A stretch of 64,000 bases of DNA. It comes from Candidatus Gastranaerophilales bacterium (GTDB taxonomy: Bacteria > Cyanobacteriota > Vampirovibrionia > Gastranaerophilales > CAJFVJ01). The position numbers and the translations under genes were made by a program. Positions 32,736 to 59,429 of the stretch are shown piece by piece. Every line of letters begins with the position of its first letter. Within the stretch, counting starts at the first letter, position 1. The notes beneath the pieces were generated by a model, which saw only the letters and a program-made list of their open reading frames with translations, was not told where the DNA came from and made no database searches. The stretch spans positions 254,437 through 318,436 of the forward strand of contig CALUSR010000001.1 in assembly GCA_944323485.1 (NCBI GenBank), read 5' to 3'.

Positions 32736-33068
32736 ATCTATATTTTAACCTTTTTCACGGATATTTCAATGTATTATATATACTATATATATAAAAACAA
32801 ACTCTTCAAAAAAATTGCCCAAACAAAAAAATTACAACTTTAGTTCGACAAAATGCAAACCGGGGTTGAATTTTCTTTTGATTTCAAAATGGTAAATTAG
32901 TAATGTAAGCAAAAAAATTCCCTAAATCCCTTGAGATACAAAGTTTTTCAACATGAGTAAAATCATTTTTACTCCTAAATTTAATATGAATACTTCCATC
33001 TCAATTAAAAATGAGCTTACACAAGTAGGTTAGTAGTAATTTTTACAAGGAAGTAAAGGAGATTTCCC
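32736..33068. other. 333-base divergent intergenic region upstream of flagellin
   Basis: Very AT-rich. It includes a TATA-rich tract (about 32770-32795), a hairpin GAGTAAAA-TCAT-TTTTACTC (32955-32974) and, before the flagellin ATG, ACAAGGAAGTAAAGGAGA with a strong ribosome-binding site. A degenerate sigma-28-like site (TAAA at 32976, then a 16-base spacer) is only a weak match to the modules at 57586 and 59302. I see no gene here. Confidence 0.5.
32955..32974 (+). promoter_or_regulatory. Hairpin in the flagellin upstream region
   Basis: Perfect 8-bp inverted repeat GAGTAAAA / TTTTACTC with a TCAT loop, 95 bases before the flagellin ATG. It lacks a T run and so is more likely an operator or leader structure than a terminator. 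Confidence 0.35.
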
Positions 33069-39990: not shown

Positions 39991-40548
39991 ATGCGTGTAG
40001 GTATGATTAATATTATAAATGCTTATAATACAACAAACGTAAAACCTAAATATAACAAAGTAGTACAAATTCACCAACATAATACAAATCCTCAAAATGC
40101 AATCTCTTTTGATAAAATAAACTTTGGTAAAAAAGAGAACAAATTCCCTGAACTTGAAATTCCGGGCAAACGTCCGACAGAATTGAAATGGTTTGGTTTT
40201 GTTGAAAGACCAAAATCGTACAACGACAAAGATTTGTCAGGACAAACAATTAATGCGGATGTCAGCTTCATTGACTTCAGTGCGGCAAATCTCTCAAATA
40301 CAAAATGGGGGAATAAAACTAAAATGGCTTATGTAATGCTGCATCAAGCAGACTTAAGCGGAGCAGACCTCTCTGAAGTGCCTGCCGAAGAACTCAGAAA
40401 AGCACGCCTCAGAGAAACCCTCTACAACGATGAAACTATCTTTCCAAAAGGCTACAATCCTGAAACAGAAACTGAATTTATATCAAAAACTTCTTATCAG
40501 AAAAACGGACAAACCATATATCTGCCTCATTGGATTAAAAAGAATTAA
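39991..40548 (+). CDS. Pentapeptide-repeat-like protein with ISF/INF motifs
   Basis: 185 residues. The N-terminal 45 are Asn/Gln-rich and end in AISFDKINFGKK, like the ISFGKK in the large protein at 19-2409. Residues about 85-130 contain degenerate pentapeptide repeats (DLSGQTINADVSFIDFSAANLSNTKW and HQADLSGADLSEV, shown here only as motif regions) that would form a short right-handed beta-helix. Some pentapeptide proteins mimic DNA or bind gyrase; no such role is supported. There is no signal peptide. An alternative start is ATG 40003. Confidence 0.65.
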   Translation: MRVGMINIINAYNTTNVKPKYNKVVQIHQHNTNPQNAISFDKINFGKKENKFPELEIPGKRPTELKWFGFVERPKSYNDKDLSGQTINADVSFIDFSAANLSNTKWGNKTKMAYVMLHQADLSGADLSEVPAEELRKARLRETLYNDETIFPKGYNPETETEFISKTSYQKNGQTIYLPHWIKKN

Positions 40549-52745: not shown

Positions 52746-53891
52746 ATGGTACAGGGTATAAATCCAATCGGGACAAATTCAACAGCAACAACGCAGGTTA
52801 CACCACCATCAGCGTCATCATCAACGGCGAAAGAAGACAAATCAACATCTCAGCAGATGACTATGATGCCGTCAATACCTATGCCTGCTGATATGATAAA
52901 CACATCATTGCAAACACCTTCTGAGATAAAAAACTCTCAAAATTCACAGGTTGACACAACAGGCGGTGCTCCCGCCACACCTGCTTCAACAACAGCTCCG
53001 GCAGGAGCACAAAATTTGACAACTCCAGCATCAACAAACGGAGTTGGCGTTCTCAATCCTCCGAATGTATCTACGAACCCTCTGCAGGATAGATACGGTT
53101 TTATAAAAGATGACCCATACGGGCTGAATAACCCTCAAAATCAGGATACCCAGCTTATAGCTTCTCAGGGGCTAAATTTATTCCCAGAAGCAAGTTCTTA
53201 TTATAATCCTGATAAACCATCTTCTCAAAGCCCTCTTGCAGCTTTCGGAATAGGAGGAACCAACGGCACAACCAAACAATCGGGTGGTCTTGGAAGTATT
53301 CTTAAAACAGCCGTTTTTGCTGTTGCCGGTTTAGTGTTGTTTAAATCAATACGAGGAAGAAAAGCTAAAGTTATCTCTGATGCTCTCGGCGGTGCAAAAA
53401 ATACCGTATCACAGAGAATTGTTAAAGAATTTGATGAATTCAAAGATTTCTTTACTGACACAATGGATAACCTGGCTGATTTGACACCCAAAACAGCTGA
53501 CAACATCAAAATGAATTTATCAGGAAGAACACTTGATGAAACAAAAGATATAATAGACAAAACAAGAAGACTTGCAACGGAATATTCAAGACTGCCAGGG
53601 ATGAGACCCAAATATGTTGTCTACCTGAAAGAAGGTATGGAGCCTTCCCAGGATGCATTGATTGATGCTCTCAAAAGAAATGACTTGAGCGGAATATCAG
53701 ATGACATACTCAGAGGAATAGAAGAAATAGACCTCATCGCAGAAAAAATTGCCCCAAGCACGGAACTTCAAAGCAACATTTTGTTCAATCCGGTTGTAAG
53801 AGAAAACTTCAGCACTCATAATAACACTGAAATGTTCGGACTTGCCGGAAAAAACTTGAGAACAAGAATATCAAATTTCCTTGCAAAATAG
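52746..53891 (+). CDS. Unknown protein with Ser/Thr/Pro-rich N terminus and one hydrophobic segment
   Basis: 381 residues. The first 170 are low-complexity (Ser, Thr, Pro, Asn, Gln), probably disordered. A hydrophobic stretch GSILKTAVFAVAGLVLFK (about residues 181-198) may cross the membrane. The C-terminal 180 residues are helical and charged. No signal peptide is seen. GTCAGGTAG before the ATG is a weak ribosome-binding site. It ends at a palindromic terminator. I do not recognise it. Confidence 0.65.
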   Translation: MVQGINPIGTNSTATTQVTPPSASSSTAKEDKSTSQQMTMMPSIPMPADMINTSLQTPSEIKNSQNSQVDTTGGAPATPASTTAPAGAQNLTTPASTNGVGVLNPPNVSTNPLQDRYGFIKDDPYGLNNPQNQDTQLIASQGLNLFPEASSYYNPDKPSSQSPLAAFGIGGTNGTTKQSGGLGSILKTAVFAVAGLVLFKSIRGRKAKVISDALGGAKNTVSQRIVKEFDEFKDFFTDTMDNLADLTPKTADNIKMNLSGRTLDETKDIIDKTRRLATEYSRLPGMRPKYVVYLKEGMEPSQDALIDALKRNDLSGISDDILRGIEEIDLIAEKIAPSTELQSNILFNPVVRENFSTHNNTEMFGLAGKNLRTRISNFLAK

Positions 53892-56427: not shown

Positions 56428-56516
56428 AATTCTCTTCCTCAAAATTCTGAGCTTTCAAAGAAAATCATAGTATAAACATCCTCTGACAGTCAATTTTTGA
56501 GAAAAATTTATTCACC

Positions 56517-56544
56517 AAAAAGACCTCATTATGGAGGTCTTTTT
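56517..56544. terminator. Terminator of the first paralogue gene (minus strand), bidirectional in form
   Basis: AAAAAGACCTC pairs with GAGGTCTTTTT across a six-base loop. It lies 23 bases after the end of the minus-strand gene at 56567 and before leuC. Confidence 0.88.
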
Positions 56545-56566: not shown

Positions 56567-57397
56567 TTAGTATCTTTCACTGTCTCTTGAATGCTTACGC
56601 CGTCTTTCTTCGTTCTGGTATTCTGTGTTGTAACCCGGATATAAAAGAGAAAAATCACGCAGTTTTTCTTTAAATTCAGGATTTTCAGTTATCCTGCCTG
56701 TCTTTTCATCTTTTTCATATCGTTGTATAGCATTACCTTCTTCATCATAAAAGGTATAGTTATCAGGTATCAAACCATCAGTCCAGCCTATATCTTCTAT
56801 ATATCTCTGATCATTCTTATTTTCTATCACTGTTTCCACAGAACCGTCGTCATTATAATAGAATGTTGTAGTATCTCTTGTATCATCATGTTGAGGATTT
56901 GATGGATCACCGGAATATTTATCCTCTATACTTTTTACAAGTTTATCACCTTCATAAATATTTGTTATAACCGTTCCGTCGTCATATTCTATTGTTTCTC
57001 GATACATCGGGTCGGTTTTATAATATTCTCCTGTTTCAGGGTTAATCATGGGAGGAAATTTTACTTCTTCTGAGCCTTCTATATATTCTTTTTTATAATA
57101 TTCGGCTCCATCAAGAGATTTTTTGGACACACCGTTTTCAGGAGGAACAGGTATACTTTCGGGCATATCCGTTATAGGGTCATGGTTTTTTGAGGATTTT
57201 GTATCGTATCCCTCAACTTCTATTTTAACTCTATCTTCATTTGACTGGCTTGCTGATGATGAAACGCTCTGTTTCCCGGTATTTTGTTCACTTTTCTGGA
57301 GCGGTTTTATAATATTAAAACTTGCATTATTAACAGCATTATTAAAATATTTTTCTCCGCCGAAATCATCACCTATACCTGTAAATTTAATACCCAT
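56567..57397 (-). CDS. DxDG-repeat paralogue 1, function unknown
   Basis: One of three related proteins in this cluster (see 57641 and 58471). It has 276 residues and no signal peptide. A short N-terminal GIKFTGIGDDF segment is followed by a polar linker, then DRVKIEVEGYDTKSS (about 57-71), DMPESIPVPPENGVSKKSLD, and repeated beta-type units around YDDGTVITNIYEGDKLVKSI, YYNDDGSVETVIEN and YDEEGNAIQRYEK. These resemble MORN-like/YwqK-type repeats. GGAGAA precedes the ATG and the 46-residue companion lies just upstream in the same transcript, which starts at the sigma-28-like promoter at 57586. Confidence 0.8.
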   Translation of the reverse strand: MGIKFTGIGDDFGGEKYFNNAVNNASFNIIKPLQKSEQNTGKQSVSSSASQSNEDRVKIEVEGYDTKSSKNHDPITDMPESIPVPPENGVSKKSLDGAEYYKKEYIEGSEEVKFPPMINPETGEYYKTDPMYRETIEYDDGTVITNIYEGDKLVKSIEDKYSGDPSNPQHDDTRDTTTFYYNDDGSVETVIENKNDQRYIEDIGWTDGLIPDNYTFYDEEGNAIQRYEKDEKTGRITENPEFKEKLRDFSLLYPGYNTEYQNEERRRKHSRDSERY

Positions 57398-57411: not shown

Positions 57412-57552
57412 TTAGGTATTTTGTTGTTTTTCTTCATCAACACGCTCTGTTTCTTCTTTCGGAACAGAGGCATCTAATATCTTTCCAAGGCTGAAACTTC
57501 TTTTTCCGAGAACTGCAAAATCATTGAAATATTCTTCTGTGTATATATTCAT
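57412..57552 (-). CDS. 46-residue companion of paralogue 1
   Basis: The frame encodes 46 residues starting MNIYTEEYFNDFAVLGKRSF, acidic at the C terminus, with no motif I know. GAGG lies ten bases before the ATG. It is the first gene after the sigma-28-like promoter (start 33 bases after the -10-like element) and is followed after 14 bases by paralogue 1, whose ribosome-binding site lies between them. A secretion chaperone or a peptide tag are both possible; neither is supported by sequence. Confidence 0.6.
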   Translation of the reverse strand: MNIYTEEYFNDFAVLGKRSFSLGKILDASVPKEETERVDEEKQQNT

Positions 57553-57585: not shown

Positions 57586-57613
57586 ATGTCGGCAAGAATT
57601 CATGTATTCTTTA
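57586..57613 (-). promoter_or_regulatory. Sigma-28-like promoter, copy B
   Basis: Reading the minus strand: TAAA (57613-57610), a 16-base spacer, then GCCGACAT (57593-57586), close to the flagellar sigma-28 consensus TAAA-N15-GCCGATAA. The spacer begins GAATA and ends CTT; TTGCCGACATG is shared with copy A. Both copies lie 33 bases before their start codon. Confidence 0.6.
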
Positions 57614-57640
57614 GTTTTTTTCAGTTTTTTTTAACAATAT

Positions 57641-58432
57641 TTAATAATCTATTAAACTCTGTTTTCTTATTTCTTGTGCAAGCCCGAACTCATTAACGGA
57701 CTTTATATATTCCCTGTATCTTTCTTGCCATCCTATATCACCTTTATATATAGGATTACCTTCTTCATCATAAAATATGTCATCTGCTATACTTCCAACC
57801 AGAAAATCTCCCCAACCTTCGCTTGTATATTCATATCTGTCGTTATGAACATGTGTCACATTACCATCTTCATCATAAAAGAACATTTTCTGTGATGATC
57901 TGTCTCCATAGTCAGGATTATCAGGGTCGATAGGATTACCTTCTTCATCCTCAAAATTTCTTTCTATACTCATAGACAATTTGTCACCCTGATATGTATT
58001 AACAATAATTGTTCCGTCATCATATTTTATTATTTCTTGATATGTAGGTCCTTCAGGATCATCTACCGTACTATCAACAACCACTTTTGTATAAGAAACC
58101 GCACCATCTAAAGATGTTTTTGATACACCGTTTTTAGGCGGAGTCGGAATGCTGTCAGGCATATCTGTTGTAACAGTAATTCCTTCAATTTTTGAGTCTT
58201 CCGATTTTGGTTCTTCTGTTTTTAATTTATTTGAAGACTTTTTATCAGAAGAAGCTTCTGTCTTAGAATTATATCCGTCAATTTCTACTCTAACATTATC
58301 TTCTGCTGCCGGTTCTTTTGATACTTTCTCTTTTTTTGAATTATCTTTCAAAATATTGTTATATCCAACTTGGCCGGTTAAATTACCCAAATTTACACCA
58401 GATAAACTAAACCCTAAAGTTTTAATATTCAT
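57641..58432 (-). CDS. DxDG-repeat paralogue 2, function unknown
   Basis: 263 residues, related to the proteins at 56567 and 58471. NVRVEIDGYNSKTE near residue 46 matches their VEVEGY/VEIRGY motif, followed by DMPDSIPTPPKNGVSKTSLD and repeats YDDGTIIVNTYQGDKLSMSI, FFYDEDGNVTHVHND and FYDEEGNPIYKGD. It is highly acidic with no signal peptide or membrane segment. AAAGGAGA precedes the ATG; it lies 38 bases after paralogue 3 with no room for its own promoter, so the two share a transcript. Confidence 0.8.
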   Translation of the reverse strand: MNIKTLGFSLSGVNLGNLTGQVGYNNILKDNSKKEKVSKEPAAEDNVRVEIDGYNSKTEASSDKKSSNKLKTEEPKSEDSKIEGITVTTDMPDSIPTPPKNGVSKTSLDGAVSYTKVVVDSTVDDPEGPTYQEIIKYDDGTIIVNTYQGDKLSMSIERNFEDEEGNPIDPDNPDYGDRSSQKMFFYDEDGNVTHVHNDRYEYTSEGWGDFLVGSIADDIFYDEEGNPIYKGDIGWQERYREYIKSVNEFGLAQEIRKQSLIDY

Positions 58433-58470
58433 TTTTTCTCCTTTTTTATAAAAAAACTTTTTTACATAAA

Positions 58471-59268
58471 TTAAGGAATATCAAAGAAGCCTTCAGAAGG
58501 AGGATAAATCATCATGCTTCCATTTTTTATTCTGTTATAATCGCTCGTTGGACCCATTTCATAAGGAACTCTGTTTCCGTCTTTGTCATACACTTCATAA
58601 TCAGAAAAACTTTTTACAAGACTATCATACCATCCTGGAGATATACCAGGTATTTCAGTCCAAATATTAGAATTATGAGCAATAACAGTACCTTCTTCAC
58701 TTTCATAAGTAGTTGTAGTACTTCTTATATCTCCTTCCTGCGGGTTGTTAGGGTCACCTGAATATCTTGTTTCCTGTGTTACATGAACACCGTTTTTTGA
58801 ATAATATTCTTTTACAACAGTTCCATCGACATATTTTGTAATTATTTCAGTACCATTTTGGTGTGTATTCTCTTCTCGTGAAACTATATTTTCATCTTTC
58901 AGCGGGGTATTTTTCCATGATGTATCTTTTGGAACATTTACACTATAACCACCTATAATATTAACTTCTGTATAGCCTTTTGAAGAATCAACTTTGTTTG
59001 AATAAGAAGTTGAAGTGTTGTTTTTTACATCCTGATTGTCAGAAGAAGCCTTTGAAGATTTATTATTTTTTCCCTTTTGTGTTCTAGAAGAATCATTATA
59101 CCCTCTGATTTCTACTCCTACTTTATCTTCTCTGTTTACAGAATTTTCTTGTCTATTAGAAGAATTATTATTGCGCAAATATTGATTGGCTATTTTTACC
59201 TCAGTGCCAACAAGTCCAAGATTGTTGAAAAAATCGTCACTTCCTAATCCTTCTATTCTAAAACCCAT
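58471..59268 (-). CDS. DxDG-repeat paralogue 3, function unknown
   Basis: 265 residues. MGFRIEGLGSDDFFNN at the N terminus matches paralogue 1 (GIKFTGIGDDF), then a Ser/Asn-rich linker and DKVGVEIRGYNDSSR. Repeats follow (YVDGTVVKEYYSKNGVHVTQ, TYESEEGTVIAHN, YEVYDKDGNRVPYE). No signal peptide. The start is ATG 59268 because AAGGAA lies eight bases before it; the ATG at 59292 would start at the promoter's own leader. First gene of a two-gene transcript with paralogue 2 from the promoter at 59302. Confidence 0.8.
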   Translation of the reverse strand: MGFRIEGLGSDDFFNNLGLVGTEVKIANQYLRNNNSSNRQENSVNREDKVGVEIRGYNDSSRTQKGKNNKSSKASSDNQDVKNNTSTSYSNKVDSSKGYTEVNIIGGYSVNVPKDTSWKNTPLKDENIVSREENTHQNGTEIITKYVDGTVVKEYYSKNGVHVTQETRYSGDPNNPQEGDIRSTTTTYESEEGTVIAHNSNIWTEIPGISPGWYDSLVKSFSDYEVYDKDGNRVPYEMGPTSDYNRIKNGSMMIYPPSEGFFDIP

Positions 59269-59301
59269 AAATATTTCCTTTTTTAAGTACACTTACCTTC
59301 C

Positions 59302-59329
59302 ATGTCGGCAAATTTTTATTTATTCTTTA
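59302..59329 (-). promoter_or_regulatory. Sigma-28-like promoter, copy A
   Basis: Minus strand: TAAA (59329-59326), a 16-base spacer starting GAATA, then GCCGACAT (59309-59302). The same module as at 57586-57613; a T-rich block with TTTAACAATATTTAA also recurs just upstream in both (about 57629-57643 and 59347-59361). Confidence 0.6.
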
Positions 59330-59429
59330 GATTTTTTCCTTTTTTTTTAACAATATTTAACAATAATCAATTCATTTATTTATGAAATAATAAGAATTAT
59401 TCTTCTAAATAAAACTCGGGGAAAGCAAA

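What the first reader, a model, noticed from the sequence alone, without database searches (positions are those of the whole stretch)
57586..59329. Duplicated sigma-28-like promoter module drives both paralogue transcripts
Two sites, 57586-57613 and 59302-59329, read TAAA-GAATA-N11-GCCGACAT on the minus strand, with the same 16-base spacer and the same 33-base distance to the start codon. A TTTAACAATATTTAA block recurs upstream of each. The elements are close to the FliA consensus TAAA-N15-GCCGATAA. With a flagellin in the window, this suggests the unknown family belongs to the flagellar regulon, and that products without signal peptides might leave through the flagellar export system.
Basis: partly seen in the sequence, partly recalled or inferred. 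Interest (0 to 1): 0.7.

Follow-up and report, generated by a model that had tools for sequence, protein, structure and literature searches.

The report
Composite FliA-type promoters, orphan-protein regulon
The two promoters are real and belong to a set, conserved across a whole order of gut bacteria, that switches on proteins without export signals together with part of a second flagellum-like export machine, kept even in a relative with no detectable flagellum.

Summary
The promoters are FliA (sigma-28) type and the genome encodes a FliA above curated cut-offs. Sixteen exact matches to a tightened motif exist in 2.05 Mb (4.4 expected); 14 lie just upstream of a gene. The regulon tracks a second, filament-less flagellum-type apparatus, conserved order-wide. 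Family f2 genomes lack the canonical flagellar FlhA yet keep these promoters (42 matches, 1 control), and one f2 genome keeps FliA beside the second system's rod genes. Export of the products is inferred, not shown. Unknown: the repeat-binding activator, and whether FliA or a FliA-like sigma next to the second FlhB acts here.

The parts
59302..59329 (-). P1 core promoter: TAAA-N16-GCCGACAT (FliA-type -35/-10)
   Evidence: conserved in Ca. Adamsella avium
59348..59363 (-). P1 upstream direct repeat TTGTTAAATATTGTTA (TTGTWA-N4-TTGTWA), ending 18 bp before the -35; putative activator site
58471..59268 (-). Paralogue 1 (265 aa), no signal peptide, no Cys, first gene of the P1 unit
57641..58432 (-). 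Paralogue 2 (263 aa), second gene of the P1 unit; decayed in Ca. Adamsella avium
57586..57613 (-). P2 core promoter: TAAA-N16-GCCGACAT
57632..57647 (-). P2 upstream direct repeat TTATTAAATATTGTTA, ending 18 bp before the -35
57412..57552 (-). 46-aa ORF, first gene of the P2 unit; conserved in Ca. Adamsella avium
56567..57397 (-). Paralogue 3 (276 aa), second gene of the P2 unit
56516..56544 (-). Hairpin AGACCTC...GAGGTCT followed by T run: likely terminator of the whole cluster
   Evidence: read from the sequence; not tested with the terminator scan

Best explanation
Each site is a two-part promoter: a FliA-type core (TAAA-N15/16-GCCGAtaa) and, 18-19 bp upstream, a direct repeat with a 10-bp period (TTGTWA-N4-TTGTWA) where an unidentified activator probably binds. 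P1 drives paralogues 1 and 2, and P2 drives a 46-aa ORF and paralogue 3. They belong to an order-wide regulon of orphan, signal-less, cysteine-poor proteins, including the MGLAASQ family. The rod-gene operon of a second, filament-less flagellum-type export apparatus has similar cores in two families. The most likely function is to make substrates or surface parts for that apparatus when FliA (or the FliA-like sigma encoded beside its FlhB) is active. Shown by sequence: motif, spacing, conservation, co-occurrence, composition. Inferred: sigma usage, activator, export.
For: Exact sites and conservation. FliA above cut-off: TIGR02479 252 bits against 189.6, PRK06986 241 against 201. 16 exact TAAAG-N15/16-CCGAYAW in the genome, Markov expectation 4.4, 14 of 16 just upstream of a gene while ORFs cover 91% of sampled sequence. 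TAAA-N16/17-GCCGATAA: 77 matches against 12 reversed controls in 40 genomes. Repeat at 18/19 bp in 21 of 47 promoters, shuffled mean 0.11, maximum 2; the promoters were chosen by the core motif alone. Same architecture (repeat, 17 bp, TAAG-N16-GTCGATAG) before a 45%-identical homologue from another Gastranaerophilales genome. Second system: FlhA2, FliF2, FliE, FliH, FliI, FlgB/C and rod proteins; divergent FlhA in all 40 genomes, canonical FlhA absent from f2; f2 genome G017 keeps FliA (54% identity) about 4 kb from the rod operon. FliA-type cores before the rod operon in G000 and G008. Regulon Cys 0.10% against 1.13% background, 5 seen against 58 expected. One clear signal peptide among 15 products.
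Against: No transcript or secretion data. Cysteine poverty also occurs in some other orphans of the window. In this genome only a minority of the regulon promoters (about 7 of 21, both window sites included) carry the repeat at the fixed distance with 10 or more of 12 positions; the others match weakly or not. The -10 of the window sites (GCCGACAT) departs from GCCGATAA at the sixth and last bases. Two FliA-family sigmas are encoded, and which one acts is unknown. The window family itself is nearly genus-restricted.
Confidence: 0.68

Rival explanations
1. Ordinary flagellar late-gene regulation: FliA drives these genes as accessory products of the motility flagellum, exported through the canonical flagellum.
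For: The species has canonical flagellar genes and several flagellins; one flagellin has TAAAGAATGTAAACTTTGGTTCGATAA 86 nt upstream. Campylobacter is a known precedent for non-flagellar proteins leaving through the flagellar system (abstracts).
Against: Exact sites do not precede recognised flagellar genes. The motif is most enriched in family f2, which lacks canonical FlhA: 42 matches against 1 control in 18 genomes. In one f2 genome no canonical FliF, FliG, flagellin, FlgK or FlgI was found in about 1.54 Mb, while FliA and the promoters persist.
Confidence: 0.15
2. FliA-type core read by FliA, but the products stay inside or reach the envelope by another route; the regulon reflects a surface or host-contact state, not substrates of a flagellar-type exporter.
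For: No product has been shown to be exported; one target has an ordinary signal peptide; Cys-poor orphans also occur outside the regulon.
Against: Strong Cys depletion beyond background and even below axial flagellar proteins, lack of signal peptides, conserved N- and C-termini with variable middles in the MGLAASQ family, as in axial proteins, and a FliA-type core before system 2's rod operon.
Confidence: 0.13
3. Chance or mere duplication: a housekeeping promoter region copied along with the gene, with accidental FliA resemblance.
For: The two modules are similar copies; the loose motif is not enriched.
Against: Only the 60-bp promoter block is conserved between copies; the tightened motif is enriched, intergenic and spacing-specific; the repeat-to-core distance is fixed across genera; the distant homologue L107 has the same architecture.
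Confidence: 0.04

Closest known systems
FliA (sigma-28/sigma-D) promoters of E. coli and Bacillus (TAAA-N14-16-GCCGATAA/T; from general knowledge)
   Same: -35, -10 core and spacing; a FliA above curated cut-offs is encoded
   Different: Extra direct repeat at a fixed 18-19 bp; mostly orphan targets; window -10 reads GCCGACAT
Non-flagellar proteins exported by the flagellar system in Campylobacter jejuni (Cia and others; PMC2764114, PMC5223770 abstracts; Fed proteins of Barrero-Tobon and Hendrixson 2012, cited in PMC11187230)
   Same: Non-flagellar proteins that leave through a flagellar export system, in the Fed case co-expressed with flagella
   Different: Here the linked machine is a second, filament-less system; export not shown
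Filament-less flagellar basal bodies of Buchnera aphidicola (PMC8109811)
   Same: Basal body and export gate kept without a filament
   Different: Here it is a parallel system conserved across an order and has its own FliA-type regulon; canonical flagella coexist in some families
'Incomplete flagellar gene sets' of Gastranaerophilales (Di Rienzi 2013, PMC3787301; Soo 2014, PMC4040986)
   Same: Very likely the same genes: shared set flgG, flgG, flgC, fliF, fliH, flhA, fliI, flgE, flhB, fliPQR
   Different: Those papers read partial sets as genome reduction or loss; here they look like a conserved separate system
PhoB/OmpR-type activator sites (direct repeats of about 11 bp; from general knowledge)
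   Same: Direct repeat about one helical turn apart upstream of the -35
   Different: 10-bp period, TTGTWA half-sites, no regulator identified

Membership tests
FliA (sigma-28) dependent promoter | TAAA -35 and GCCGATAA-like -10, spacing 14-17 | tested here: met
   TAAA-N16-GCCGACAT at both sites, with departures from consensus at -10 positions 6 and 8
FliA (sigma-28) dependent promoter | A cognate FliA is encoded | tested here: met
   TIGR02479 252 bits over 189.6; PRK06986 241 over 201
FliA (sigma-28) dependent promoter | Transcription starts just downstream of the -10 and depends on FliA | not testable with these tools
   No expression data
Flagellar motility/chemotaxis late regulon | Motif upstream of flagellins and other late flagellar genes | tested here: not met
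   Of eight flagellin-type genes one has a close match; no exact site precedes a recognised flagellar gene
Flagellar motility/chemotaxis late regulon | Motif upstream of flgM, fliD, motA and che genes individually | not tested
   These genes were not located one by one
Flagellum-type export apparatus (second system) | FlhA, FlhB, FliI, FliH, FliF, FliE, rod proteins | tested here: met
Flagellum-type export apparatus (second system) | Independent of a filament: present where filament genes are absent | tested here: met
   G017: no flagellin, FlgK or FlgI hits in about 1.54 Mb; canonical FlhA absent from the f2 genomes searched whole
Substrate of a flagellar-type exporter | No Sec signal, cysteine-poor | tested here: met
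   not specific to the regulon
Substrate of a flagellar-type exporter | Secretion dependent on the export gate | not testable with these tools
   Needs an experiment
Known protein family for the window paralogues | Match above cut-off in Pfam, NCBIfam or PDB | tested here: not met
   fold model low confidence, no convincing fold match

The most novel reading that the evidence does not exclude
Gastranaerophilales carry a conserved, flagellum-derived but non-flagellar secretion system whose substrates (MGLAASQ family and many orphans, including the window paralogues) are switched on by FliA together with a dedicated activator bound to a 10-bp direct repeat. FliA has thus been taken over from motility to run a secretion regulon.
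Probability: 0.5. Interest if true: 0.87.

Novelty: new variant of a known kind. Interest (0 to 1): 0.74.

Why it matters
Non-photosynthetic relatives of cyanobacteria are common in animal guts and little is known of how they meet their host. If right, genes long read as decaying flagellar remnants form a working, order-wide export system, and the composite promoter gives a way to list its substrates from DNA alone.

Tried and rejected
(2) A first pattern with the spacing one base off gave no enrichment; corrected. (3) A FliA promoter at the window's own flagellin: none. (4) FliA absent from f2: looked so after about 1.2 Mb, then found; idea dropped. (5) The SigF-like sigma next to the prepilin peptidase as reader of the promoters in f2: classified as SigF-like, not FliA; not strictly excluded. 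(6) Known-family, solved-structure and fold searches for the window proteins: nothing useful. (7) Literature on FliA or type III secretion in Gastranaerophilales/Vampirovibrionia: nothing on point in the held library.

Full report
The window lies in a 2.05-Mb Gastranaerophilales genome (G000, contig C1). Its only same-genus neighbour among 60 relatives searched, G001, corresponds to Candidatus Adamsella avium.

Observation. Both sites are exactly as described, with spacer 16 and 33 bases from -10 to ATG. TAAAGNNTN10TTGCCGACAT occurs without mismatch only at these two places in the genome. In G001 both modules are conserved at the same places. The gene between them (paralogue 2) has decayed there to a short remnant, while the second promoter, the 46-aa ORF and paralogue 3 remain; paralogue 3 begins with TTG there. 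Aligning the four copies shows a shared block of about 60 bp from the upstream repeat to the -10, with unrelated flanks between the two promoters. Nothing recognisable as a terminator was seen by eye between paralogue 2 and P2, so P2 may also be an internal promoter; a hairpin with a T run follows paralogue 3 (read).

Sigma factor. The genome encodes a FliA at C2:161.3 kb scoring over two curated cut-offs. It also encodes a shorter FliA-like sigma (221 aa, 75 bits, below cut-off) directly downstream of a FlhB.

Is the motif a regulon? The loose motif is not enriched. The tightened TAAAG-N15/16-CCGAYAW is: 16 exact matches against 4.4 expected from an order-3 Markov model (Poisson P 1.6e-5). 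Fourteen of 16 lie just upstream of a gene in the right direction (one, C5:52330, was at first called inside an over-long ORF, but in G001 it is intergenic, 37 nt from the start). ORFs cover 91% of a sample of the genome. Most sites recur in G001. In one f2 genome, matches outside ORFs concentrate at spacers 15-17 (8 of 13, against 3 of 24 for other spacers, P 0.006). Over 40 genomes TAAA-N16/17-GCCGATAA gives 77 matches against 12 reversed controls.

The second element. It is a direct repeat TTGTWA-N4-TTGTWA. Among 47 promoters picked by the core motif only (P2 excluded as a duplicate), 21 have at least 10 of 12 matching positions with the repeat ending exactly 18 or 19 bp before TAAA; shuffled sequences give 0.11 on average, 2 at most. 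Fifteen of the 21 are from other genera. A composite scan ranks P1 second among the held stretches of G000, and most top hits in G017 (1.56 Mb scanned) precede MGLAASQ-type or other orphan genes. Of 1,776 ORF upstream regions 11 score 20 or more. The distant homologue L107 (45% identity, another Gastranaerophilales genome) scores 20, with the repeat 17 bp before TAAG-N16-GTCGATAG. So the promoter travels with the family.

What is regulated. Targets are mostly without Pfam or NCBIfam assignment. In many genera the site stands before MG[LM][AS]ASQ proteins, whose N- and C-termini are conserved around a variable middle, as in flagellar axial proteins; this is a likeness of layout, not shown homology. 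A gene beside cinA (G000 L183, G017 L205), apparently orthologous by position and sequence, keeps the site across families. One of 15 products has a clear signal peptide. Cysteine is 0.10% against 1.13% background, 5 residues where 58 are expected, and no length-matched draw in 5,000 was as low. Axial flagellar proteins have 0.30%. Some other orphans in the window are also cysteine-poor, so this is suggestive only.

The second export system. C1:568-580 kb holds FliI, FlhA, FliH, two FliG-like proteins, FliF, FliE, a transglycosylase, FlgC, FlgB and two FlgF/G-like rod proteins, apart from a canonical set on C4. The divergent FlhA occurs in all 40 genomes; the canonical one is missing from all 18 f2 genomes. 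Those 18 have 42 promoter matches against 1 control. In f2 genome G017 the second system is present, a FliA with 54% identity lies about 4 kb from its rod operon, and no flagellin, canonical FliF or FliG, FlgK or FlgI was found in about 1.54 Mb of roughly 1.77 Mb. Upstream of the rod operon, FliA-type cores are readable in G000 (TAAA-N15-GTCGACAA) and G008 (TCAA-N15-GTCGATAG); G017 has only a weaker GTCCGATT. The FlhB of this system is followed by the FliA-like sigma in both G000 and G017 (71% identity).

Literature. Di Rienzi et al. 2013 (PMC3787301) and Soo et al. 2014 (PMC4040986) noted partial flagellar sets in gut Melainabacteria and read them as loss. The shared genes the former lists match the second system. 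Nothing on a FliA regulon or non-flagellar secretion in this group was found. Related ideas exist elsewhere: flagellar secretion of non-flagellar proteins in Campylobacter (abstracts; Fed proteins cited) and filament-less basal bodies in Buchnera.

Interpretation. Best reading: P1 and P2 are composite FliA-type promoters of an order-wide regulon linked to the second export system. The promoter and regulon parts rest on sequence statistics and conservation. Sigma choice, activator and export are inferred.

Noticed in passing
G000:C1:506184-506849 (L180 1685-2350); G017 L299 6829-7491: A FliA-like 221-aa sigma factor encoded directly downstream of the second-system FlhB, conserved at 71% identity between families; a second candidate sigma for the regulon.
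   Followed up: partly
G000:C2:425134-425160 (L182); G017 L259 19630, L292 10516, L282 16462: Strong composite or core promoters with no ORF of 60 aa or more right downstream; possible small RNAs or very small proteins.
   Followed up: no
G000:C2:396801-401441 (L114 11801-16441): A 1546-aa protein with a flagellin N-terminal domain and no cysteine.
   Followed up: no
window 32800-33068; L098, L101: Several flagellin genes share ACAAACTTT..TTCGAYAA-like stretches upstream; perhaps a flagellin-specific variant promoter.
   Followed up: no
L112, L233, L312 upstream of the rod operon: A conserved CGGATGATTTTTAT-like element upstream of the second system's rod operon in three families.
   Followed up: no
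L059 4975-5040; L107 5300-5310: Paralogue 2 has decayed in Ca. Adamsella avium and the distant homologue is interrupted by a stop codon, suggesting fast turnover of this family.
   Followed up: partly
window 52746-53891, 39991-40548, 19-2409: Other orphan, cysteine-poor proteins in the window without this promoter.
   Followed up: no
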